Part shown: positions 2,180 to 39,580 of the stretch, piece by piece
Layout: every line of letters starts with the position of its first letter
How positions within the stretch are numbered: the stretch's first letter is position 1
DNA from: a virus
DNA length: 41,454 nucleotides
Reading direction: 5' to 3' (one strand)
IMG/VR virus record: IMGVR_UViG_3300005289_000009
Location: 1 to 41,454 of that record
Program-made: the position numbers and the translations under genes
Notes under the pieces: model-generated
Databases searched by the model: none
The model's input: only the letters and a program-made list of their open reading frames with translations
Told to the model about the DNA's origin: nothing

Positions 2180-4821
2180 ATGATGCGCTCCGGCCTGGCA
2201 GGCTGTTCGAAGACCCAGCAGTGGACGGCGCGGCCTTCCGGATTGTTGACGTTGCCGGTGGCGAGCCATTTGCGGGACTTGGAATCGCGCAGCAGGTTGC
2301 GCAGCTTGTCCATGTCTGGCGGCGTGATTCCGGCATTGCGGCAGCGCGCCTCGTAGTCGACCAGGCGGATAGCGATCTTGCCCGCATCGCGGTGCTGGTT
2401 GATCGACTTGCCGGCAGCGTGATCCTCGGGCTTCTCGCGGTCGAGCAGGTATTCGACCTGCTCCCAGAACCGCGCGACCAGGACATGGTCGCCGCCGCAC
2501 GACTTCTGGCGATCGAGCGCCATGGCATCGACCAACTGCAGCGTCTCGTCGATCCACTCGGGCCGGATCTCGCGGGGGAAAAGGGGCTTCAGCGCCTCGA
2601 CGGCAGCGGCGAGCTGCGAGTGCGTCTTGATGGGGCGCGTGTTGACCAGGCCATTGACGCGCTTGGCCATCTGGCCGTCGTGATGACGGAAGCGCTCGAA
2701 GAAGAAGGGGAGGAACTTGGCCTCGTTGCGGACGATGTGGACGATCGTCCCGGAGACGTTCTCCATCGGCCAGTTTTCAAGCCGGATGGCCGCATCCTTG
2801 GTCGCTTCCGACCACCGCGCCTTGTCGATGTTCATCGACATCAGGCGTTCGAGCACCGCCGGGATGGCGTTGATCCGCTCATTCTGCATGAGGTAGATCG
2901 CGCCGAGGAACGGCGGCTCAAGCGTTTCGTAGCCGCCCGACTTCTGGCCGATGCCGCGCGGGGAACGGCCGTTGTAGAGAACGAGCAGCTCGTTGTAGTC
3001 GTATTGGCGGCCGCCACGCTTGTCGTCATCGCCGCGGTTGCCTTCGATCAGGCCGACCGGCAGGTTGGCGACCTTGAGCAAGCTGCGAGCGATGAACGCC
3101 GGGGTGGCCTTGTTCGGATCGAAGCCTTCGTATCCCGCGCGTCCGGCGAGCTTCCAGAGGAACTCGATCAGGGTGGACTTGCCCGAGCCCGGCAGGCCAG
3201 TGATTTCCAGGAAGCCGAGCGACTTGTGCTTGTCGCGGATCTGGACCGCAAAAAAGCTCATCACGAAGAAGGCGAGGGCGACGAAGCCTTTTGGCCCGTA
3301 GGCAGTCCAGAGATCGGCGAGCCATTCGGCATCATGCCGATCGGGGTCATAGGCGATGTCGAGCAGCCGTTCGGGGCTGCGCAGTTTCACTGCCTGCTTG
3401 CCGAAATCGAAATAGTTCTCGGTGTTGATCTTCTCGATCCGGCCGTCGCGAACGGCCATGTCGCCGAAGAGCCAGGCGCGGTGCGGCGCCGAGTAGCCAG
3501 TGAACGGGATCGGCTCGACCACCTTGAGCCGCCGTGTCTGGCCGCGCATCAGTCGGTCCAGTTGCTCGCCGGTTCCGCTCCACATGCCGGCGAAGGCCAT
3601 CAGGCGTTTCTTGAACTCGCCGGAGTTGGCGCAGGCGGCAGCGGAGAAGCGCGCCTTCACAGTGGGCGCGTCGGGGAAATCGACCTGCAGGAAGTAGTTC
3701 GTCTCGTCCGCGATCTCGTCGCGTTCGCGGTAGAGCATGCGGAAGGCGCAGTTGGCGATCTCATCGGTGTAGAGTTCGCGGCCGTCGTCGGTTTCCTTGA
3801 CGCGGGCCCACCACAGGCGGTTGCCGTGGCGGAAGTCGAAGCTCATCAGCGCGGGATTGCGCGCAATGATCAGCTTGGCCTTGTCGCGCGCGGTTTCGGC
3901 GATGGTGATGGCGCCGTTCCAGAGGTATTCATCGATCGCGTCGGGACCGAGAGGCGCCTTCTCCGCCTCGCCCTTCCATTGCTGGTGGCGCAGGAGCAGG
4001 TCGTTCCAGTCGAGCGTCGTGCCTTCGCCGTCAGGGCGAACCTGCGCGGCAGTTGCCGTCCATCCTTCCTCGCGGGCTTGCTTGACGAAACGGCGGGCCC
4101 ATTTGACCCCTGCGGCTCCGGGATCGAAGGCAAAGACCAGACGCGGGCGGGTGGCGCGTTTGATGGCGCGCAAGGCCTCGCGCAGCTGGTCTAGGAAATG
4201 CTCGGGCCAATAATTGCAAGACATGGCCGAGACAGTGAGGAGGTGCGCTCCCTGGTGGAGCGCCTGGGCGTTGAAGATACCCTCGCAAATCCAGACATCA
4301 TCGGCGGAGGCAAAGTCCTCGATCGTGAGGCGAGGCGGCATCCAGCAATGCCCGCCCGGCTTGCCGCCGGCCTGGAAGTGCGCCTTTTTCTCGAAGCGGC
4401 CCGGCTTGTCGATGATGCGTTCCCACCATGTGGGGCCGACTTGGAAACGGACCGTGGCGGCGGATTCGCCGCTAGCGCGGTCGCGGTAGACTTCCTGCGA
4501 ATAGGCGCCGCGCAGAAGCTGCAGGTCCAGCCCGCGCTCGTGCAGTAGATAGGCATCGGCGGCTGCGCTTGGATTTTCGTCGCTGGCGGGGAAGCGTTTC
4601 GACCAGTCCTCGAACAGATCGGGCAGCAGGCTGCGCACCGACCATTCCGAGCCGCACTTTTCGGAGCGGCCGCAACGGACGATCTTGGGATCCTTGGACG
4701 CCGCAAACACAGAGCGTTCGCGGCAATCTGGGCACTTGCCACCCTGCAACCAGTCGCCCGCCGTTTTGCGAAAACCGAACTTGTCCTGCAGACCCTTGAG
4801 AATTTCAGCTTCGAGGTTCAC
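2176..4821 (-). CDS. Bifunctional DNA primase-helicase, 881 aa
   Basis: Likely replication protein that primes and unwinds phage DNA. The N-terminus has a zinc-binding primase region (KCPDC about residue 30, then VRCGRSEKCGSEW). It is followed by a TOPRIM-like core with RLVFAFDPGAAG and DWNDLLLR. The C-terminal half carries an NTPase with Walker A GLPGSGKST and a hydrophobic strand ending in Glu (NLPVGLIEGNRGDD) as probable Walker B. I start it at the GTG at 4821, which overlaps the upstream stop as GTGA; an in-frame extension to 5196 runs antisense-like through another gene. P2 itself uses a rolling-circle initiator, gpA, so this is a different, P4-alpha-like strategy. The TOPRIM and NTPase assignments are from motif reading. 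Confidence 0.88.
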   Translation of the reverse strand: MNLEAEILKGLQDKFGFRKTAGDWLQGGKCPDCRERSVFAASKDPKIVRCGRSEKCGSEWSVRSLLPDLFEDWSKRFPASDENPSAAADAYLLHERGLDLQLLRGAYSQEVYRDRASGESAATVRFQVGPTWWERIIDKPGRFEKKAHFQAGGKPGGHCWMPPRLTIEDFASADDVWICEGIFNAQALHQGAHLLTVSAMSCNYWPEHFLDQLREALRAIKRATRPRLVFAFDPGAAGVKWARRFVKQAREEGWTATAAQVRPDGEGTTLDWNDLLLRHQQWKGEAEKAPLGPDAIDEYLWNGAITIAETARDKAKLIIARNPALMSFDFRHGNRLWWARVKETDDGRELYTDEIANCAFRMLYRERDEIADETNYFLQVDFPDAPTVKARFSAAACANSGEFKKRLMAFAGMWSGTGEQLDRLMRGQTRRLKVVEPIPFTGYSAPHRAWLFGDMAVRDGRIEKINTENYFDFGKQAVKLRSPERLLDIAYDPDRHDAEWLADLWTAYGPKGFVALAFFVMSFFAVQIRDKHKSLGFLEITGLPGSGKSTLIEFLWKLAGRAGYEGFDPNKATPAFIARSLLKVANLPVGLIEGNRGDDDKRGGRQYDYNELLVLYNGRSPRGIGQKSGGYETLEPPFLGAIYLMQNERINAIPAVLERLMSMNIDKARWSEATKDAAIRLENWPMENVSGTIVHIVRNEAKFLPFFFERFRHHDGQMAKRVNGLVNTRPIKTHSQLAAAVEALKPLFPREIRPEWIDETLQLVDAMALDRQKSCGGDHVLVARFWEQVEYLLDREKPEDHAAGKSINQHRDAGKIAIRLVDYEARCRNAGITPPDMDKLRNLLRDSKSRKWLATGNVNNPEGRAVHCWVFEQPARPERII

Positions 4822-21220: not shown

Positions 21221-24200
21221 TCAAACAGGTCCAACGGCGAAATAGCGACAACCAATGCTGGCCTGGTTGCAGCGGGCGGGAAATGAGGCTCCGGTGATGC
21301 CATTGCTCGACCAGGTGGAGATGTCGCTGGCGGTGGTCACGACGGCCATGGTGACGAGAGTGTAAGGCTCCTCCGAGAAGGCGATCGGGAACGTGACCGT
21401 GATCGCCTGGCCGGCTATCGCCGGTGATGTCCAGCGGCCCCATTGCAAGACCAGACCATTCGACAGGCGCATGTATCCGCTGGCTGACTTGCTTTCCGCG
21501 ATGATGCGCAGGTAATCGCTGCCTTGCAGGCCATCGAGCGTGTCAGCGTCCAGGCCGGAGCCAGATCCGTCATTGCCCGCGTCCCACACGACATTGCCCT
21601 GGCGGGAAATTGGCATAGCGATGTTGAACGGGCCGGTCTGGCTACCAACGCTCCACACCGCAGCATCGCCGCTTCCGGCGTTGCGATAGAGCGCGATGTT
21701 GCCATCTGCCTGGGCAGCGAGCCGCGCAATGACCGATGCAGTCGAATTGAGCGTGAAGGTGACGTTGCCGGAATAGTTTACATCGACCGCCCCGGTAATC
21801 GTGCCGCCAGCGCTATTGTAAGGCGTGTATCCCAGGCGCGCAGGAATGTTGGTGTAGAAACTGCCCTGCTGCCCATCGAGCAGATCGGCATCCAGACCCG
21901 ATCCAGCACCGTCATTGCCCGAGTGCCAGAGTTCGTGCGCAACAGCGCCCATCGACCACCCACCCACTTTCCAGCGGTTGTCCGTGTCGATACCGAAGTA
22001 AGCAGCGTAGGCGTTCGGACGTTCGAACGACATGATCGCAGGGCCGGTGCCGTTTCCGATTGCGTGAAGCGCCGAAAGCGAATTCGGGCGGGCCGCGATC
22101 GACGCGCTATCGGTGGTACGAAAATTGATCGTCGCGGTAACCGTGTCACCCGCACGATTGATGGGCGTGTATCCCAGGCGCGCAGGAATGTTGGTGTAGA
22201 AACTGCCCTGCTGCCCATCGAGCAGATCGGCATCCAGACCCGATCCAGCGCCGTCATTGCCCGCGTCCCAGACAGAATTGTTCTGCCGTGTGATTGGCAT
22301 GGAGATTTCGAACGGGCCGGCCTGACTTTTGACGCTCCACACCGCAGCGTCGTCAATCCCGCCGTTGCGATAAAGCACCACATTGCCATCGGCCTGGGCT
22401 ACTAATCGCGCTATAACAGCACCGCTGCTGTTCAACGACAGGCCAACATTGCCGGCATAGTCGAGCGCCAATGGACCTGACATGGTATCGCCGTCGCGTC
22501 TGACAGGCTGATAGCCCAAGCGCCCAACGATGTCGGAATAATAGCTGCCCTGCTGCCCGTCGAGCAGATCGGCATCCAGCCCGGAGCCGGCGCCATCGTT
22601 CCCGGCATGCCAGACCGTACTCGAATTGAATTGCATGGACGTGTCGGAAATCAAGAGCCGGGCGGCGCCGCCGACCATGAATGTGTGGCTGACGATCGCG
22701 CCGTTCGAGGTGCGAAAACCATAGCCCAGGCGTCCCGGCTCGCTGGCGATCCCTACAGCGCCGAACCAGTGATTGCCGTTGGCATCCGCCGCGAGGAAAG
22801 TGCGTGCATTGGTGTTCGTGAAACCGGGTACCGTGACAGGGCCGGTGAACGTGTCGCCAGCCTTGTTGGCCGGCGTGAAGCCGAGACGCGCAGGAATGTT
22901 GGTGTAATAGCTGCCCTGCTGCCCGTCGAGCAAATCGGCGTCCAGCCCGGAGCCGGCACCGTCATTGCCGGAGTGCCAAAGTTCGTGCGCCACAGCGCCC
23001 ATCGACCACCCGCCTACTTTCCAGCGGTTGTCCGTGTCGATGCCGAAGTAAGCAGCGTAGGCGTTCGGACGTTCGAACGACATGATCGCCGGGCCGTTGC
23101 CGTTTGCGATTGCGTGAAGCGCCGCGGGCGAATTCGGGCGGGCCGCGATCGACGCGCTATCGCCGGTACGAAAATTGATCGTCGCGGTAACCGTGTCGCC
23201 GGCGCGGTTGATGGGTGTGTATCCCAGGCGCGCGGGGATGCTCGTATAGTAGCTGCTGTCCTGCCCGTCGAGCAGATCGGCATCGAGGCCGGACCCGGCA
23301 CCGTCATTGCCGGAGTGCCAAAGTTCGTGCGCCACAGCGCCCATCGACCACCCGCCCACTTTCCAGCGGTTGTCCGTGTCGATACCGAAGTAAGCAGCGT
23401 AGGCGTTCGGACGTTCGAACGACATGATCGCCGGGCCGGTGCCGTTTCCGATTGCGTGAAGCGCCGCGAGCGAATTCGCGCGGGCCGCGATCGACGCGCT
23501 ATCGGTGGTGCGAAAAAAGATCGTCGCGGTAACCGTGTCACCCGCGCGGTTGATGGGTGTGTATCCCAGGCGCGCGGGGATATTCGTGTAGTAGCTGCCT
23601 TCCTGGCCGTCGAGCAGATCGGCGTCGAGGCCGGAACCGGCGCCGTCATTGCCCGGATGCCAGATCGCGCTATTGCCGGAGCCAAACCGCGCATCCAGTC
23701 GCGTCGACAAAGCATCAGCGAAGGCGCGAGGCGTCACGGCGCGCTGGGTATCGGTCCCGGTGTTCGTCTCGGCGCTTGTGGCAAGTTCGACCACGCCCTG
23801 TCGCGATACCGTCGCCGGAGGGTTGAGGAAATCCGTACCGCCGAACGTCAGCAGCGCCGCGCTGATGTCCGCAAAGACCGTGTCAACGGCCAGTGCGGCG
23901 AAGGACGTCGCTGTCTTGCTCAGGATGGGATCAGCCTGTCCATAAACGGCAAACAGTGTGCCGTCCTGCAGGTAAAGAGCAAAGGCGCGCAGGGTGTACG
24001 CATCAGCACTCTCATCAAGCACGCTGATGTGGATCATGTCATCGGCGACGACATCGCCGGACACCGCCCCGATTCGTTTAAACTCGTCAGGCAAGGCAGT
24101 CATGCCGACAGCCGGCGCAACAGCCGTTTGGGAGAAGCCGACCTGCGCGATGGTGACCGGAGCGGTTCCCGTGTTCGCGGCATTGACCAGCGCGGCACGG

Positions 24201-24232
24201 CCGGCGGTGGTCACAAGGATGTTCAGAGCCAT
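21221..24232 (-). CDS. H: Tail fibre protein gpH, 1003 aa, repeat-rich
   Basis: The N-terminal 180 residues (MALNILVTTAGRAALVNA onward) are the baseplate-attachment domain of P2 H-like fibres, including VSRQGVVELATSAETNTGTD. The shaft contains seven copies of a GNDGAGSGLDADLLDGQ segment and three nearly identical 114-residue modules ending in NRWKVGGWSMGAVAHELWH. Two further copies of a SGNVxLxLNSxxxVIARL block are present. The C-terminus (GYMRLSNGLVLQWGRW, then FAVGPV) is a typical receptor-binding tip. Start at ATG 24232; longer in-frame starts overlap the upstream gene. Confidence 0.92.
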   Translation of the reverse strand: MALNILVTTAGRAALVNAANTGTAPVTIAQVGFSQTAVAPAVGMTALPDEFKRIGAVSGDVVADDMIHISVLDESADAYTLRAFALYLQDGTLFAVYGQADPILSKTATSFAALAVDTVFADISAALLTFGGTDFLNPPATVSRQGVVELATSAETNTGTDTQRAVTPRAFADALSTRLDARFGSGNSAIWHPGNDGAGSGLDADLLDGQEGSYYTNIPARLGYTPINRAGDTVTATIFFRTTDSASIAARANSLAALHAIGNGTGPAIMSFERPNAYAAYFGIDTDNRWKVGGWSMGAVAHELWHSGNDGAGSGLDADLLDGQDSSYYTSIPARLGYTPINRAGDTVTATINFRTGDSASIAARPNSPAALHAIANGNGPAIMSFERPNAYAAYFGIDTDNRWKVGGWSMGAVAHELWHSGNDGAGSGLDADLLDGQQGSYYTNIPARLGFTPANKAGDTFTGPVTVPGFTNTNARTFLAADANGNHWFGAVGIASEPGRLGYGFRTSNGAIVSHTFMVGGAARLLISDTSMQFNSSTVWHAGNDGAGSGLDADLLDGQQGSYYSDIVGRLGYQPVRRDGDTMSGPLALDYAGNVGLSLNSSGAVIARLVAQADGNVVLYRNGGIDDAAVWSVKSQAGPFEISMPITRQNNSVWDAGNDGAGSGLDADLLDGQQGSFYTNIPARLGYTPINRAGDTVTATINFRTTDSASIAARPNSLSALHAIGNGTGPAIMSFERPNAYAAYFGIDTDNRWKVGGWSMGAVAHELWHSGNDGAGSGLDADLLDGQQGSFYTNIPARLGYTPYNSAGGTITGAVDVNYSGNVTFTLNSTASVIARLAAQADGNIALYRNAGSGDAAVWSVGSQTGPFNIAMPISRQGNVVWDAGNDGSGSGLDADTLDGLQGSDYLRIIAESKSASGYMRLSNGLVLQWGRWTSPAIAGQAITVTFPIAFSEEPYTLVTMAVVTTASDISTWSSNGITGASFPARCNQASIGCRYFAVGPV
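21838..22177. repeat. Fibre module repeat, copy A
   Basis: DNA copy of the 114-codon tail fibre module, highly similar to the segments beginning near 22888 and 23230. The copies are in the same frame. Confidence 0.75.
22888..23229. repeat. Fibre module repeat, copy B
   Basis: Second copy, 342 bp before copy C and 1050 bp after copy A, both multiples of three. GTTCGTGCGC marks equivalent points at 21931, 22981 and 23323. Confidence 0.75.
23230..23571. repeat. Fibre module repeat, copy C
   Basis: Third copy, tandem with copy B. Recombination between copies would shorten or lengthen the fibre by 114 residues without a frameshift. Confidence 0.75.
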
Positions 24233-24254
24233 GCGGCTGTCTCCGGATGGCGGC

Positions 24255-24815
24255 TCACGCGGCAGGAGCCTGAGCAAAAATGCGGGCGAACGTGACGGGC
24301 CGGGCTACGGCACGCAGGCCGATCTGGCCGATGCCGTTGACCGCCACGGTGAAATCGAAATGGTCGCGGGCGGACTTGGTACGGCCGACCTCGGCAATCA
24401 CCGCATCGATGAACTCGGCGCTAGGGGCGCCTTCACTCTGACCGCCCAGCGACACAGTCATGTTGAAGGTATGGGGGATGCCGGCCGGTTCGCGTTCGAA
24501 CCACGCGCGCATCACGACGTTGCCGCCGAAACTGGAAATGACGTCGGTGACGGATTTCGCGGTCCCTTTGATTCGCTGGATGGCGATCGCGGCAGCAACA
24601 CGGGCGCGGCGCACTTCGACCGGCCAGTCTGCCGACCACTGATCGACCGACAGCGCCCAGGCAAGCCAAGGGAGCAGCTCTTCCGGACAGTCCCGAGCCG
24701 ACCAGACAGTTCGCAGCGGCGCCGGGATCGCGTCGATCCGATCGTGCTGCAGCTGGTCCGCTGCCTTCACGAGCGGTACGGCATTCGGCGGTGCAAGAGC
24801 GGCGGGAGCACTCAT
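24255..24815 (-). CDS. I: Tail protein gpI, 186 aa
   Basis: Matches P2 I: LPWLAWALSVDQWSADWPVEVRRARVAAAIAIQRIKGTAKSV is diagnostic of the family, which forms part of the baseplate wedge. It overlaps gene J by ATGA and is followed by the fibre gene, as in P2 (J-I-H). Confidence 0.94.
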   Translation of the reverse strand: MSAPAALAPPNAVPLVKAADQLQHDRIDAIPAPLRTVWSARDCPEELLPWLAWALSVDQWSADWPVEVRRARVAAAIAIQRIKGTAKSVTDVISSFGGNVVMRAWFEREPAGIPHTFNMTVSLGGQSEGAPSAEFIDAVIAEVGRTKSARDHFDFTVAVNGIGQIGLRAVARPVTFARIFAQAPAA

Positions 24816-31051: not shown

Positions 31052-32976
31052 GCGCCGAAGCCCATACCGATACCGACGACCGAGCTATCAGCCGGCAGGT
31101 CGGCCGTGCGCAGAGGCGCGAGGCGCGCTCGCTCTATTGGCGAGGCTGGCGGATCACCGACATCGCCGACGAGGTCGGCGTGGCCGAGGGGACGATCAGC
31201 AGCTGGAAGAGCCGTGACCGGTGGGACGACGATCCGCCGGTGAAGATCCTGGCCGACAGGCTGGAAGCGAAAATCGCCACCCTGCTGGACAAGGAGCCGT
31301 TCACCGAAGGCGACATGAAGCGCGTCGATTTCCTGATGCGCCAGATGGAACGCGCTGCGCGGATCGAGAAGTTCGGCCAGACCGGCAAGGAGGGCGATCT
31401 CAACGAGAAGATCGCCGCGCGCAACGACGACAAGGCGAAGGCCAAGCGGGCGGACAAGCGGCGCAACTTCCTGACGCTGGATCAGTGGCAGGCGCTGCTC
31501 GACGACTTCCACGCCAAGAACTTCGACTACCAGGAACTGTGGTGGTCGAAGCGCGGCGAGCGCGTGCGCAAGCTGCGCAAGAGCCGCCAGGTAGGCGCGA
31601 CATGGTATTTCGCCCGCGAGGCGTTGGCGAAGGTCGCCGAAGCGGTGTTGAACGGCCGGGGCCTCGAAGCGCTGGACGAGGACGAGCGGCCCCGCAACCA
31701 GATCTTCCTTTCCGCTTCCGAACGACAGGCGCTGAAGTTCCGCCGTGAAATCACCGGGTGGGTGCGCCGGGTGACTGGGGTGGAGCTGAAGGGCAAGATC
31801 ATCATGCTCGACTTCGTCGGGCAGTATCCCGGTGAAGAGGAGGACGAGCAAGACGGGCCGTCGCTCGATCCGGTCGGGTTCTATTTCCTTTCTACCAACA
31901 GCGCCACCGCGCAAGGCGAAAGCGGCGATTTCTATTTCGACGAATATGCCTGGGTGCATGGCTTCGCCGAGCTGAACCGCGTCGCCAGCGCCATGGCGAC
32001 GCACAAGATCTACAAGAAGACCTATTTCTCGACGCCGTCGACCAAGACGCATCCGAGCTATGCCTTCTGGAGCGGCGAGGAGTGGAACAAGGGCCGCGCG
32101 AAGGGCGAGCAGAAGAGTTTCGACACCAGCCTGAAGACGCTGCGCCACGGCGCGACCATGCCCGACGGATCGTGGCAGCACATCCTGACTATTCACGACG
32201 CGGCAGCGGGCGGCCTGGGCAAGCTGGTCGATGTGGAAGAGCTGCGCCGCGAGTATTCCGAGGAGGAGTTCCGCAACCTCTTCGAATGCGAAGACGTGGA
32301 CGACAGCGAGAGTAGCTTTCCCTACTCGCGCATCGCGCCGGCACGGGTGGACAGCTTCCTCAAGTGGCGGGATTTCAAGCCGGCGCTGGTGGATATCCCC
32401 GGCGCACGGCCGTTCGGCGAGAAACCGGTATGGATCGGGTACGATCCCAACAAGCAGGGCAAGGACGATGCGGCTCTGGTGGTGCTGGCGCCGCCCGATC
32501 TGCCCGGCGGAAAGTTCCGCGTGCTGGAGAAGTACCGTCTGAACGGCCGGGACTTTCAGGGACAAGCGGACTTCATCAAGGACATCGCCGCCCGATACAA
32601 CGTCACCGACGTCGCGATCGACACCACCGGCCACGGCCAGGCGGTGTGGGAGCTGGTGGTGAAGTGGTTCCCGCTCGCCCGGCGGATCGAATACTCGGTC
32701 GCCAGCAAGACGGCGCTCGTCATCAAGGCGCAGAACGTATTCCGCGCTGGCCGCATTGAGTTCGATTCCGGGTGGACCGACCTGATGCAGGCGTTGATGG
32801 CGATCCGTCCGGCGCTGACCGGCAGCAAGAAGGGCGTCACCTATGTCGCCCAGCGCAACGGCACTGTCGGCCATGCCGATATCGCCTGGGCCCTGCTCAA
32901 TGCCCTTTCCAACGAACCGCTAGACGTGGGCAGCGCCAGTGAAGGCGCGGGCGCGGCGGTTGTGTTCTTCGACTGA
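31045..32976 (+). CDS. P: Terminase large subunit gpP, 643 aa
   Basis: Packaging ATPase. The N-terminus has the P2 P HTH (SLYWRGWRITDIADEVGVAE, then ISSWKSRDRWDD). The ATPase motif A is the variant KSRQVGATWYF, with QIFLSASERQALKFRREI following and acidic FYFDEYAWVHGF as the probable Walker B region. The nuclease domain starts near IGYDPNKQGKDDAALVVL. The start is uncertain (ATG 31045 or GTG 31030), since both lie in a hairpin and neither has a strong ribosome site. It precedes portal Q as in P2. Confidence 0.93.
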   Translation: MHRAEAHTDTDDRAISRQVGRAQRREARSLYWRGWRITDIADEVGVAEGTISSWKSRDRWDDDPPVKILADRLEAKIATLLDKEPFTEGDMKRVDFLMRQMERAARIEKFGQTGKEGDLNEKIAARNDDKAKAKRADKRRNFLTLDQWQALLDDFHAKNFDYQELWWSKRGERVRKLRKSRQVGATWYFAREALAKVAEAVLNGRGLEALDEDERPRNQIFLSASERQALKFRREITGWVRRVTGVELKGKIIMLDFVGQYPGEEEDEQDGPSLDPVGFYFLSTNSATAQGESGDFYFDEYAWVHGFAELNRVASAMATHKIYKKTYFSTPSTKTHPSYAFWSGEEWNKGRAKGEQKSFDTSLKTLRHGATMPDGSWQHILTIHDAAAGGLGKLVDVEELRREYSEEEFRNLFECEDVDDSESSFPYSRIAPARVDSFLKWRDFKPALVDIPGARPFGEKPVWIGYDPNKQGKDDAALVVLAPPDLPGGKFRVLEKYRLNGRDFQGQADFIKDIAARYNVTDVAIDTTGHGQAVWELVVKWFPLARRIEYSVASKTALVIKAQNVFRAGRIEFDSGWTDLMQALMAIRPALTGSKKGVTYVAQRNGTVGHADIAWALLNALSNEPLDVGSASEGAGAAVVFFD

Positions 32977-32989
32977 CAGGAGCCCTTTT

Positions 32990-34072
32990 ATGAATGAAGC
33001 CCTTTCCACCGAGGTGGTGCCACAGGTCGAAGCCGATCAAGTGCGCTTTCCGGCCGACGCCTATTCGTTCGGCGATCCGGAGAGCGTGCTCGATCGCCGC
33101 GAGCTGAGCCAGTATTTCGAGGTGTGGCACAACGGACGCTGGTACGAGGCGCCACTGCCGATGTGCAAGCTGGCGCAAGTGTTCAACATGGCGCCGTATC
33201 ACCGCAGCGCGATCGGCCTGAAGGTGAACATGCTGGTGGCGCAGCAGCAGCCAAGCCGCTGGCTTTCCGCAGACGACTTCGAGCGGTTCGCGTTGGATTT
33301 CTGCCAGATGGGCAACGGCTATCTGGAGTGGGTGCCGAACATGGCGGGCAGGCTGGCGCGGGCGGCGCACAGCCCGGCGGTGCATACGCGGGTTGGCGTG
33401 GACCCGGGGGTGTTCTGGTTCATCAACGCGCCGATCGGGCAGCAATACTCCTTCCCGCAGGGCCGGATGTTCCAGCTGCAGCAGCCCGACCCGGCGCAGG
33501 AGATCTATGGTATGCCCGAATGGCTGGCGGCGCTGCAGTCAGCCTTGCTAAGCGAGAATGCCACGCTGTTTCGCCGCCGCTATTTCAAGAACGGCGCGCA
33601 CCTGGGGTTCATCCTGCAGATCAACGATCCGCTGGTCGATACGAAGACGATCGACCTGATCAAAGAGAAGCTGGCGCAGGGCAAAGGGGCGGGCAATTTC
33701 CGCAACATGCTGCTCTATACGCCGGGCGGGAAGAAGGACAGCGTGCAGCTGATCCCGGTGGGCGAAGTGAATGCCAAGGACGACTTCCTCAACATCAAGA
33801 ACATCAGCCGCGATGACATGCTGGCCGCACACCGCACGCCGCCGCTGCTGATCGGCGTGATCCCGCAAAACGCCAGCGGCCTGGGCAAGGTGACCGAGGT
33901 GCGCGACGATTACTATCAGTTCGAGGTGGTGCCGGTGGCCACGCGCATGCTGCGGATGAACGCCTGGTTTGGCGTGCCGGTGCTGTCTTTCGCGGATTAC
34001 GTATGCAGCGACGGGGCGGTGATCCGGCAGGTGGGGGAGGGGTTTCAGAAGGTGGCTGCGGGCGTGCGGTAA
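32990..34072 (+). CDS. Q: Portal protein gpQ, 360 aa
   Basis: P2/PBSX portal family: YSFGDPESVLDRRELSQYFEVWHNGRWYEAP, then GNGYLEWVPNMAGR, EIYGMPEWLAALQSALLSENATLFRRRYFKNGAHLGFIL, AHRTPPLLIGVIPQN and the late VPVATRMLRMNAWFG. AGGAG lies eight bases upstream of ATG 32990. Coupled to P. Confidence 0.95.
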   Translation: MNEALSTEVVPQVEADQVRFPADAYSFGDPESVLDRRELSQYFEVWHNGRWYEAPLPMCKLAQVFNMAPYHRSAIGLKVNMLVAQQQPSRWLSADDFERFALDFCQMGNGYLEWVPNMAGRLARAAHSPAVHTRVGVDPGVFWFINAPIGQQYSFPQGRMFQLQQPDPAQEIYGMPEWLAALQSALLSENATLFRRRYFKNGAHLGFILQINDPLVDTKTIDLIKEKLAQGKGAGNFRNMLLYTPGGKKDSVQLIPVGEVNAKDDFLNIKNISRDDMLAAHRTPPLLIGVIPQNASGLGKVTEVRDDYYQFEVVPVATRMLRMNAWFGVPVLSFADYVCSDGAVIRQVGEGFQKVAAGVR

Positions 34073-34194
34073 GGATTTCCGCCGCCAGAGGGCGGGGGAC
34101 AGGGGCGCGGCAACGCCCAAGTCCGACGAAACGAACTCGTCATGATCCCAATCGGTCCCGCCATGGGGCCATCCCGCCTGCCGACTCGGCGCGG

Positions 34195-34209
34195 GAACAG
34201 TTAGAGAAC
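34195..34209 (+). promoter_or_regulatory. LexA (SOS) box upstream of dam
   Basis: GAAC-AGTTAGA-GAAC: a perfect GAAC-N7-GAAC direct repeat, the alphaproteobacterial LexA operator, ending four bases before the ATG at 34214. Host LexA is expected to repress the gene. The rest of the 34073-34213 gap is GC-rich (CCGCC...GGCGG) and gene-free. Confidence 0.78.
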
Positions 34210-34213
34210 AAAC

Positions 34214-35036
34214 ATGACAGAGTCGAATCTCGTTTCGCCGCTCGATCCGGTCGAGCCCGTCCAGCCATTGGCGCCCTATATCGGCGGCAAGCGGCAAGCG
34301 GCAGCTGGCAAAGCGCCTGATCGCGCTGATCAATTCGATCGAGCACCGAACCTATGCAGAGGTTTTCGTGGGCATGGGCGGTGTGTTCCTGCGCCGTGAT
34401 CATCGGCCGAAGGCGGAGGTGATCAACGACTGGTCGGAGGACGTCTCCACATTCTTCCGGGTAATCCAGCATCACTACGTGGCGTTCCTGGACATGCTGC
34501 GCTGGCAGATTACGAGCCGCGCAGGATTTGAGAAGCTGCTTGCGCTTGAGCCCAGTTCGCTGACCGATCTACAGCGATCGGCGCGGTTCCTCTATCTGCA
34601 GCGCCTGGCGTTTGGCGGGAAGGTGAATGGCAAGACGTTCGGCGTTGTCACCGCTGGGCCAGCCCGTTTCGATGTGACCAAGCTGGGGCCGATGATCGAG
34701 GCGGTGCACGAACGCCTGGCTGGCGTGGTGATCGAGCGATTGCCCTGGTCAGACTTCATCGCGCGATATGACCGGCCGGAGACGCTGTTCTACCTAGATC
34801 CACCGTATTTCGGGAACGAGGGCGACTATGGCCGCGACATGTTCGACCGGGGGCAGTTCGAGCTGATGGCCAAGCAGCTGCGGGGGATCCGGGGGCGGTT
34901 CGTATTGTCACTCAACGATCACCCGGAAGTGCGGCGGATCTTCGCCGGGTTCGAGTTTCGGGAGGAGCGGCTGTCGTACACCGTCGGGGGTATGGATAGG
35001 GCGAAGGCGGTAGGGGAGGTGGTGATTTTGGGGTGA
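34214..35036 (+). pseudogene. dam: D12-class (Dam-like) adenine methyltransferase, frameshifted
   Basis: N-terminal part MTESNLVSPLDPVEPVQPLAPYIGGKRQ matches the start of D12 methyltransferases (PYxGGK), then loses frame at a tandem AAGCGGC duplication. In the next frame the protein resumes as RQLAKRLIALINSIEHRTYAEVFVGMGG (motif I FxGxG) and continues to LDPPYFG (catalytic motif IV) and the end at 35036. Removing one 7-base copy restores one open frame of about 271 codons. A GTG at 34368 could start a truncated protein without most of the SAM-binding motif. If functional it would methylate adenine, perhaps to protect phage DNA. A LexA box sits just upstream. Confidence 0.85.
34289..34302 (+). 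repeat. Heptanucleotide tandem repeat (AAGCGGC)2 that breaks dam
   Basis: AAGCGGC occurs twice in a row and is preceded by GCGGC, so about 2.7 copies. Seven bases shift the frame by one; one or four copies would keep dam in frame. Confidence 0.85.
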
Positions 35037-35144: not shown

Positions 35145-35845
35145 TTATTTTTTTCTTGGAAAGGCGGGGTAAATAAAATTAATATCTTCAATTTTCAAAA
35201 ATTGAACTCGGTAAGTTTCGTCTATTAAAAAAATACGTTCGTTGTTTTGAAATATTGGTATTCCAACAATATCGTTATTTTTTCCGTAATTATAGAGTAA
35301 GCATTTTTCACAATTATTTATAATTTGATCAAGAAATTTTGAATACTCTTTATAAGCATAAACTTCTGCGGTGCTTAAAAGTCCAGATTGAAAAAATGTC
35401 ACCGTCGAGAAAATTGCGCATAATAATCCAAAAATTAAAGCAGATGGAAATGGATAACTCCTGCCTTCAGATTGGGAATCTACACTAAAATTTTCTTTAT
35501 TAACTTTTTCTAAATAGGTGCGATACACTCGCAAACGCAATCTGCGATAGCTTGGTATTAGGTAGGCAATCAGGCATAGCACAGTCAATGCACCTGAGAA
35601 GGCTGCGAGAAACCCTAAACCATCTATCCCTGCTAAGATTCTAGCCCCTTGCGCAACAGTTAATTGGAACGGCTCTTCACTAGGGGGGTGACGAGCCCGT
35701 AAAAGGTTGCCAGCTTCTGGCGATAATGAATGCCGACAAAGTAGCAAATTGTGCCCGTTGCCGCAAAGATTGCCAGCATGGTTGTAACAATTGACTGTAT
35801 CATGGAAATCCAGTTAGCAACGGGCGAATTCAGGTTCCTAGGCAT
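35145..35845 (-). pseudogene. AT-rich three-helix membrane protein, frameshifted at a C6 tract
   Basis: Two overlapping reading frames form one protein if a single C is added to the C6 run (G6 at 35683-35688 on the plus strand). They are 35845-35660, ending YGLVTPLVKSRSN, and a second frame that reads PPSEEPFQLTVAQGARI. The repaired product, with YGLVTPPSEEPF across the joint, is exactly 233 codons. It has three membrane helices (ISMIQSIVTTMLAIFAATGT; LGFLAAFSGALTVLCLIAYL; ALIFGLLCAIFSTVTFFQSG) and a roughly 90-residue soluble tail. GC content is far below the rest of the phage, so it is recently acquired. Phage exclusion or abortive infection is possible; function is not shown. A TTG at 35747 could alternatively start the second part alone. 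Confidence 0.7.
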
Positions 35846-35854
35846 TAATCGCTT

Positions 35855-36862
35855 CTATCTATGTTTAGCCGCATTGGGATTACCACCATTTTTCCATAAT
35901 ACATCAGTGGGGGCGATCTGTATTTGATCTGCCGGAAACGGTCGATCAAACCGGCATGCCTCGGACAGCGGCCTGCACAGCCACGTCTCCCAATGCTCTT
36001 GTTCCAAAATCACCGGCGAGCGATCGTGGATGTGCGCCAGCTCGGGCGCGTTGTCAGTCATGACGCCGGTGTAGCAGGTGCCCCATTCCTCGCTGTCGCG
36101 CCACAGGCCCGCCCAAGCGAAAAGGGGCTGGTCCTTCACCGATAGCCAGGTGGTGGTCATGGACCCGGCCGGACCGACTGCCTCGGCATAGGCGGCGGCG
36201 GGGATCAGGCAGCGGTGCTTGGGGTTCTCCGCCCATCGCTTCCAGAAGCCGCCGAGCTTGTCGAAGCGGGCGTTGTTAACCGGCTTGGGTTTGAGGGGCT
36301 GGCCGGACTTGCCGCGCAGCGTCACTGGGAAGCCCCATGTCATCTGTTCCAGCACACGCTCGCCGTCCTGCAGGCGGACCACCCATCCGGGCTCCTTTGG
36401 GTGCACGATCGCGGGGCCATCATTCGCCTCGCGCAGGACGCGGGCGCTAAAGTGATCCTCGATCCTCTTGCGTTCGCCGGGGCGGTAGCGGTTGCACATG
36501 CAGGGAAGCTGCTGCGTTCCGCTGCCGAAATCAAGTTCTGGCAAGTGGGCGCGGATCAGACGTTTGATCTGCACGGGATCCAGCGGCTCGATCCCCAGCT
36601 TGTAGCTCCAGTTCTCCAGCGCGCCGATGAGGCGGCGCGTCTGGATGTAGCGGGCTTCGTGTTCGAAGACGTGGTGCGTCCACTGTGCCGCCAAATTCTC
36701 CCAGAACGACGCGGCCTGCCATGGTTCCGCCACGCCCTTGGTGACCAGCCACTCCAGCGCGAGGCGGTGGCCCCAATGCCGTTCGACGTCACCGCATTCG
36801 GCCTGGGCGAGGGCATCGTAAAGGGCGCGCATGGCAAGCTGGGAGAGGCGGTCGATTCGCAT
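35855..36862 (-). CDS. SRAP-domain (HMCES/YedK-like) protein with N-terminal extension, 335 aa
   Basis: The C-terminal 214 residues are an SRAP domain: MCNRYRPGE (catalytic Cys), NNARFDKL (Asn), LIPAAAYAEA (Glu) and HDRSPVIL (His). SRAP proteins covalently trap abasic sites in single-stranded DNA through Cys2. Here that Cys is residue 123 of an open frame whose first 121 residues are a separate helical domain (MRIDRLSQLAMRALYDALAQ..., ending GSGTQQLPC). The ATG of MCNRY (36499) may be an internal start, though no ribosome site is clear; otherwise the Cys is not N-terminal. A LexA box lies 12 bases upstream of the 36862 start. Confidence 0.85.
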   Translation of the reverse strand: MRIDRLSQLAMRALYDALAQAECGDVERHWGHRLALEWLVTKGVAEPWQAASFWENLAAQWTHHVFEHEARYIQTRRLIGALENWSYKLGIEPLDPVQIKRLIRAHLPELDFGSGTQQLPCMCNRYRPGERKRIEDHFSARVLREANDGPAIVHPKEPGWVVRLQDGERVLEQMTWGFPVTLRGKSGQPLKPKPVNNARFDKLGGFWKRWAENPKHRCLIPAAAYAEAVGPAGSMTTTWLSVKDQPLFAWAGLWRDSEEWGTCYTGVMTDNAPELAHIHDRSPVILEQEHWETWLCRPLSEACRFDRPFPADQIQIAPTDVLWKNGGNPNAAKHR

Positions 36863-38671: not shown

Positions 38672-38849
38672 TATTCTGGTCCTTCGCCTTCCACGCATCG
38701 TACGCGTTCCCCGCTGTTGCCGCAGGGGGATGGATAGTCACGCCGTCGCTCCTGATGTCAACGGCGCCGATCGGCAGGCCGCACTCTCGAAAGAGTTCGA
38801 GCATTCGGCGTACTTCGCTTTCAGGGACAAGGCGACGGCGGGCTGTCAC
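38646..38849 (-). CDS. Small hypothetical protein upstream of int, 67 aa
   Basis: RLVPESEVRRMLELFRECGLPIGAVDIRSDGVTI combines a helix with a short strand hairpin, a common pattern in small alphaproteobacterial phage proteins near integrases. Too unlike known excisionases to be called one, though its place would suit that. The last 26 bases overlap the integrase start. Confidence 0.6.
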   Translation of the reverse strand: MTARRRLVPESEVRRMLELFRECGLPIGAVDIRSDGVTIHPPAATAGNAYDAWKAKDQNSDRPSRRR

Positions 38850-39580
38850 CTTTCAAGCCAGGCCTTATAGGCGTCCGTGATGCGATCGACGGCGGTGGCG
38901 AAGTGCTTGGCGTTGCGTTCGATACCGGTGAAGACCTTGCCAAGACGGATCGCGGCAACGCCGGTGCTGCCGGTGCCCATGAAGGGATCGATGACGGTGC
39001 GGCCGGAAAGGTTTCGCAGGATCTTGGCCATGACGTCGAGCGGCTTGACGGTCGGGTGGCCGAAGACCTTTGCGGGCATTGTGCCCGAGGAAACCCAGCG
39101 GTGCATGTCGTGATGCTCGCCGACAGGGTGGTAGCCGGGGTTCCATGCGTGAATGTACGGCTCGACATCGGCAAGGTAGTGCTTGTTGCGCATCGGGCTG
39201 GGGTTTCGCTTGATCCAGGCAAGCACGCAGAACCGCTGGTATCGCGGCCTCAGATAGCCAAGCAGCTCGGGTAGTTGATCGTTGTGGCAGAAGACCACCA
39301 CTGAGCCGGCGCGCAGAGGGTTGATAATAGACTGGTCGAAGCCCTGGTCGAGTTCCTCCTGCACGATCATCTCCGCGCCGGTGCGGCTCTTGCGGAAGGC
39401 GCCGCCGCCCCGATTGTCGAAGCGGTACGGCGGATCCATGAATTCCGCGTCGAAGAAGCCGAGCTTCGGGCGCAAGTGGTAGGCGTCGGCGTGGTAGAGG
39501 GTGTGCGGGCCGATCTGGATCACGCTGATGTCGTCGCCGGGCGCGCCGGGGTCGAAGCCGATGAGTTGAGGTTGCATCAC
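38846..39580 (-). CDS. DNA methyltransferase, beta-class (N4/N6), 244 aa
   Basis: Motif IV comes first (EFMDPPYRFDNRGGG) and motif I later (VIDPFMGTGSTGVAAIRLGK), with HPTVKPLDVMAKIL before it: the permuted order of beta-class N6-adenine or N4-cytosine enzymes. Start and stop overlap neighbours by ATGA. It probably modifies phage DNA against restriction or acts on host sites. Target sequence cannot be read. Confidence 0.9.
   Translation of the reverse strand: MMQPQLIGFDPGAPGDDISVIQIGPHTLYHADAYHLRPKLGFFDAEFMDPPYRFDNRGGGAFRKSRTGAEMIVQEELDQGFDQSIINPLRAGSVVVFCHNDQLPELLGYLRPRYQRFCVLAWIKRNPSPMRNKHYLADVEPYIHAWNPGYHPVGEHHDMHRWVSSGTMPAKVFGHPTVKPLDVMAKILRNLSGRTVIDPFMGTGSTGVAAIRLGKVFTGIERNAKHFATAVDRITDAYKAWLER

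What the first reader, a model, noticed from the sequence alone, without database searches (positions are those of the whole stretch)
34214..35036. Dam-like methyltransferase broken by a 7-bp tandem duplication, a possible slippage switch
The gene has every expected motif (PYIGGK, FVGMGG, DPPY), but AAGCGGC is present twice at 34289-34302 and puts the two halves out of frame. Deleting one copy restores a normal protein exactly. A short tandem repeat in the 5' coding region of a methyltransferase is the classic design of a phase-variable gene. This could mark an ON/OFF switch of phage DNA methylation, or a single disabling mutation.
Basis: partly seen in the sequence, partly recalled or inferred. 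Interest (0 to 1): 0.68.

Follow-up and report, generated by a model that had tools for sequence, protein, structure and literature searches.

The report
Phage methyltransferase broken by small duplication
A phage gene for a DNA-methylating enzyme carries a real seven-letter duplication that breaks its reading frame; every sign points to one recent accident, as seen in any genome, and not to an evolved on/off switch.

Summary
AAGCGGC stands twice at 34289-34302, inside a 20-bp exact period-7 array (GCGGCAA x 2.86, 34284-34303). It breaks a D12-class N6-adenine methyltransferase gene of a P2-like prophage after about 27 codons. The first frame ends at 34399; the second stays open to 35036.

The switch interpretation is not supported. 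Of 190 related loci (overlapping sets), none carries the array; all but three keep one open frame here, and two of those three are broken by other small indels. The nearest relative has only the 13-bp seed GCGGCAAGCGGCA, given by the codons for GGKRQ. The triple array was found in no other methyltransferase in IMG/VR and not at all in 399 family-level genomes. Known phase-variable tracts with longer units are called at five or more copies.

The rear half is under normal constraint (dN/dS 0.07 to the nearest relative; 55 synonymous and 17 amino-acid changes on its own branch; no second lesion), so the break is recent. A restart product would lack the invariant GGK of motif X.

Best reading: one recent slippage duplication that disabled the enzyme in this lineage, in principle revertible, not an evolved contingency locus. 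An assembly artefact cannot be excluded without reads.

The parts
34214..34399 (+). 5' reading frame of the broken D12-class methyltransferase: true N-terminus up to PYIGGKRQ, then out of frame to a stop (61 aa)
   Evidence: Residues up to the repeat align to intact relatives (81% over 27 aa to the L002 protein).
34274..34291 (+). PYIGGK motif (motif X region); G23, G24 and K25 invariant in 33 relatives
   Evidence: aligned to GGKRQL of DpnM (2dpm).
34284..34303 (+). Tandem array GCGGCAA x 2.86 (20 bp, exact). The relative L002 has 1.86 units (13 bp). The extra 7 bp cause the frameshift.
34368..35036 (+). Rear reading frame of the methyltransferase (222 aa from a GTG; frame open from 34218), Pfam MethyltransfD12
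   Evidence: dN/dS 0.07 against L002.
34365..34382 (+). FVGMGG, motif I (S-adenosylmethionine binding)
34797..34808 (+). DPPY, motif IV (catalytic)
32939..34072 (+). Phage portal gene (P2 gpQ-like), upstream neighbour, intact
34073..34213 (+). Conserved non-coding segment between portal gene and methyltransferase, probably the cos region (inference)
   Evidence: Aligned in 22 relatives.

Best explanation
The locus is a phage D12-class (Dam-fold) N6-adenine methyltransferase gene that was recently inactivated in this one lineage by a single 7-bp tandem duplication. The codons for the conserved GGKRQ, as spelled here, contain a 13-bp direct repeat (GCGGCAAGCGGCA). Misalignment during replication of that seed added one unit. 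The reading frame shifts after GGK, and translation ends about 32 codons later. The product is a 61-residue stub without motif I or the catalytic DPPY. A restart at the GTG/ATG inside FVGMGG would give a 222-residue protein without the motif X segment, which is expected to be inactive. Shown: duplication, frames, intact relatives, constraint on the rear half. Inferred: slippage as the cause, loss of activity, recency. The three-unit array could lose a unit again, but nothing indicates that this reversibility was selected.
For: Array and frames. Nearest relative L002 has the 13-bp seed and an open frame. Of 160 loci from two collections only L026, L058 and L126 lack GGK in frame, none through this array; L026 and L126 show different small indels, and L058 has unrelated upstream sequence. 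All 30 loci from a genus-level search are intact. The triple array is absent from 399 family-level genomes at up to 2 mismatches, and the 12 IMG/VR contigs with the exact 20-mer do not match the methyltransferase. The rear half shows dN/dS 0.07 against L002 (33 nonsynonymous, 96 synonymous differences), one departure at 119 conserved columns, no stop and no indel. Changes on its own branch are 55 synonymous and 17 amino-acid, a ratio no higher than in intact lineages (32 and 13 for L002). It is the only sense gene split across frames in a comparison with seven relatives. Motif X is invariant. The intact relative folds like EcoDam, DpnM and T4Dam. In T4Dam, K11 of motif X positions the catalytic Asp (PMC3814359).
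Against: No reads were available, so a mixed population of one- and two-copy molecules cannot be excluded, nor can an assembly error. A perfectly preserved rear half is also what a switch caught in the OFF state would show.
Confidence: 0.8

Rival explanations
1. An evolved phase-variable (contingency) gene: the GCGGCAA array gains and loses units by slippage and switches phage DNA methylation ON and OFF.
For: Exact tandem array in the 5' coding region, out-of-frame unit length, rear half perfectly preserved. Slippage switching exists in phages (poly-G in Campylobacter phage receptor-binding proteins, as cited in PMC11868660) and in bacterial methyltransferases.
Against: The array is not conserved or length-variable in any of 190 related loci. 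Only 2.86 units, against cut-offs of 5 or more for longer units (PMC6321876). The seed is explained by codons of an invariant motif.
Confidence: 0.05
2. Sequencing or assembly artefact: the real phage has the shorter array and an intact gene.
For: Only record of this phage; no near-identical contig for comparison. The gene is otherwise under normal constraint.
Against: No other sense gene in the window is split relative to seven relatives. A precise 7-bp duplication without a homopolymer is not a usual sequencing error (general knowledge).
Confidence: 0.11
3. The frameshift is bypassed by recoding or by an internal start, so that a working enzyme is still made.
For: The rear frame is open through the overlap (34218-34399). 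A Shine-Dalgarno-like AGAGG lies 5 nt before the GTG at 34368.
Against: No relative has this arrangement. A restart at 34368 loses the invariant GGK. Recoding near the stop would leave FVGMGG out of frame.
Confidence: 0.03
4. An old pseudogene that has been decaying in this lineage.
For: Two other relatives (L026, L126) carry different small frameshifts in the same 5' region, so loss is tolerated at times.
Against: No second lesion in about 730 bp, dN/dS 0.07, no excess of amino-acid changes on the branch.
Confidence: 0.01

Closest known systems
Phage D12-class adenine methyltransferases of Alphaproteobacteria (PHROG 56; Sinorhizobium phage phi2LM21_p66)
   Same: 63% protein identity to phi2LM21_p66; PHROG 56 at 1.8e-57.
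   Different: phi2LM21_p66 and nearly all relatives are intact. phi2LM21_p66 gave no detectable protection in E. coli (PMC5537653), so the target sequence of this group is unknown.
Dam family (EcoDam, DpnM, T4Dam; TIGR00571)
   Same: Same fold by AlphaFold and Foldseek (2g1p, 2dpm, 1yf3); motifs X, I and IV.
   Different: The intact relative scores 62.8 against the TIGR00571 cut-off of 114.85; GATC specificity not shown.
Phase-variable methyltransferases with simple sequence repeats (modA, modM, modS phasevarions)
   Same: Tandem repeat in the 5' coding region with a unit length not divisible by three.
   Different: Those have many units that vary between strains (general knowledge). Here 2.86 units occur once, with no variation among relatives.
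Frameshift indels and frameshift scars in Mycobacterium tuberculosis (PMC8339072)
   Same: Sporadic small frameshifting indels that silence a gene and could later be reversed.
   Different: Here one allele in one phage record; no restored allele or scar has been seen.

Membership tests
D12-class N6-adenine DNA methyltransferase (PF02086) | Pfam profile match above the curated cut-off | tested here: met
   Rear frame 30.1 bits against cut-off 22.
D12-class N6-adenine DNA methyltransferase (PF02086) | Motif X (GGK), motif I (FxGxG) and motif IV (DPPY) in one open reading frame | tested here: not met
   All three motifs present but split over two frames. Met in relatives. The window copy is therefore a broken member of the family.
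Dam (GATC) methyltransferase, TIGR00571 | Score above the curated cut-off | tested here: not met
   62.8 bits (intact relative) and 40 bits (window rear frame) against 114.85.
Dam (GATC) methyltransferase, TIGR00571 | Methylation of GATC | not testable with these tools
   No methylome. The tested homologue phi2LM21_p66 gave no detectable activity (PMC5537653).
Repeat-driven phase-variable gene | Tandem repeat in coding region or promoter with a frame-changing unit | tested here: met
   GCGGCAA array at 34284-34303.
Repeat-driven phase-variable gene | Repeat number above published cut-offs (5 or more for longer units) | tested here: not met
   2.86 units against the PhasomeIt cut-off (PMC6321876).
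Repeat-driven phase-variable gene | Length variation of the tract between related genomes | tested here: not met
   No related locus has more than the 13-bp seed of this array.
Repeat-driven phase-variable gene | High-rate reversible switching | not testable with these tools
   Needs reads or cultures.

The most novel reading that the evidence does not exclude
The three-unit array is a young, revertible slippage switch that turns phage DNA methylation ON and OFF within the population of this one prophage, arising from the codons of the invariant GGK motif and its neighbours.
Probability: 0.06. Interest if true: 0.5.

Novelty: new member of a known kind. Interest (0 to 1): 0.17.

Why it matters
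As it stands it matters little: it is a fresh loss-of-function allele of an accessory phage methyltransferase. It shows that this gene can be lost at least briefly without other visible damage to the prophage, and it warns that a short tandem repeat in a methyltransferase is not by itself evidence of phase variation. If a mixed population were found, it would be a phage example of switched DNA methylation.

Tried and rejected
Phase variation tested through relatives: no length variation found. A search for the triple array in IMG/VR gave 12 contigs, none of which matched the methyltransferase by tblastn. A degenerate pattern for the frame-shifted spelling gave three unrelated genes. Exact-flank searches for near-identical copies of this phage gave none. 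Old decay rejected on substitution counts. A general sequencing-quality problem was looked for by a whole-window frame comparison; the other splits it listed are in antisense or overlapping non-coding frames. In one search a too-narrow regular expression flagged loci with PWLGGK or PYQGGK as lacking the motif; one search corrected this.

Full report
What was checked. The window is a 41,454-base virus record. It carries a P2-like late gene block: portal (phrog_68), terminase, scaffold and capsid, with similarity to P2-type phages of other hosts. It also carries an integrase and a tRNA-Phe gene. The methyltransferase lies directly downstream of the portal gene. AAGCGGC is present twice at 34289-34302 as stated. 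The full array is 34284-34303, GCGGCAA x 2.86, exact. Such a run is expected 0 to 0.005 times per window, so the tandem duplication is real as sequence and not a chance pattern.

The break. The ATG frame from 34214 runs through PYIGGKRQ, then shifts and stops at 34399 (61 aa). The frame with FVGMGG and DPPY is open from 34218 to 35036. Pfam places the rear frame in MethyltransfD12. The closest relative, L002, reads GGCGGCAAGCGGCAGCTGGCC at this point: 7 bp shorter, open, and already holding the 13-bp seed GCGGCAAGCGGCA. The seed is a by-product of the codons for GGKRQ. Most relatives spell the motif differently and lack even the seed.

Relatives. The 160 loci from IMG/VR and GTDB genomes and 30 from a genus-level search overlap in part. 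None contains the array. Frames were read in all. Three lack GGK in frame: L026 and L126 have different small indels in the same 5' region, and L058 has unrelated sequence upstream. So inactivation of this gene occurs now and then, through different lesions, which is the pattern of sporadic loss. The ranking of hits by the rear half does not bias the 5' comparison, but it does hide relatives broken in the rear half. Across 399 genomes of the family no triple array was found at up to two mismatches. The 12 IMG/VR contigs with the exact 20-mer do not encode a methyltransferase there.

Age of the break. Between the window and L002 the rear part shows 96 synonymous and 33 nonsynonymous differences (dN/dS 0.07), no stop, no indel, and one departure at 119 conserved columns. 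Polarised with 15 outgroups, the window branch has 55 synonymous and 17 amino-acid changes, against 32 and 13 for L002 and 13 to 24 amino-acid changes in other intact lineages. A gene free of constraint for a substantial part of that branch would show an excess of amino-acid changes; there is none. The duplication therefore occupies only a small fraction of the branch (inference; no date can be given).

Function of the intact enzyme. An AlphaFold model of the L002 protein (pLDDT 86.6) matches EcoDam, DpnM, T4Dam and 7m6b. The curated Dam score is not reached, so GATC specificity is not claimed. The closest tested homologue, phi2LM21_p66 (63% identity), gave no detectable protection when expressed in E. 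coli (PMC5537653); the target of this group is unknown. Motif X (GGK) is invariant in 33 relatives. In T4Dam, a motif X lysine positions the catalytic Asp (PMC3814359). Neither the 61-residue stub nor a 222-residue restart product would have all three motifs, so the allele is most likely inactive (inference).

Switch or accident. For a switch: an array with a frame-changing unit in the 5' coding region, and a preserved rear half. Against: 2.86 units, where a survey of phase variation used five or more for longer units (PMC6321876); no length variation or conservation in relatives; a seed explained by codon choice. A review stresses that spontaneous reversion at a sufficient rate is needed to call a locus phase-variable (PMC11868660). 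Reversion by loss of one unit is plausible in principle, but it would be ordinary mutation. Without reads, a mixed population or an assembly error cannot be excluded.

Verdict. Observation confirmed. Interest is low.

Noticed in passing
window 34073-34213: Non-coding segment between portal gene and methyltransferase is strongly conserved in 22 relatives (GGCGGGGGAC...GGGGCG, CCGACGA...TCGTCATG, GGTCCCGCC...CCATCCCGCCTGCCGACTCGG). By position (after the portal gene of a P2-like phage) it is probably the cos region; not tested further.
   Followed up: partly
whole window: GANTC occurs 38 times against about 156 expected from a second-order Markov model, while GATC is not depleted (398 against 357). 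This fits avoidance of the alphaproteobacterial CcrM site.
   Followed up: no
window 38846-39580 (-): Second methyltransferase gene, N6_N4_Mtase family (PF01555), weak similarity to CcrM, intact.
   Followed up: no
window 35145-35845 (-): A+T-richer stretch with two overlapping reading frames (200 aa and 61 aa) without a PHROG match and, for the longer one, without a Pfam match or a relative in IMG/VR; it may be one gene with another frameshift or a late acquisition.
   Followed up: partly
window 35855-36862 (-): SRAP (SOS-response-associated peptidase) gene close to the methyltransferase; phi2LM21 also carries both an SRAP gene and a related methyltransferase.
   Followed up: no
window 22887-23662: Long tandem repeat, period 342 bp x 2.3, 91% match, inside the 1018-aa reading frame 21221-24277 (-), in the tail region.
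   Followed up: no
L026 and L126, just upstream of position 3001: Two other relatives carry small frameshifting indels in the same 5' part of the methyltransferase.
   Followed up: partly
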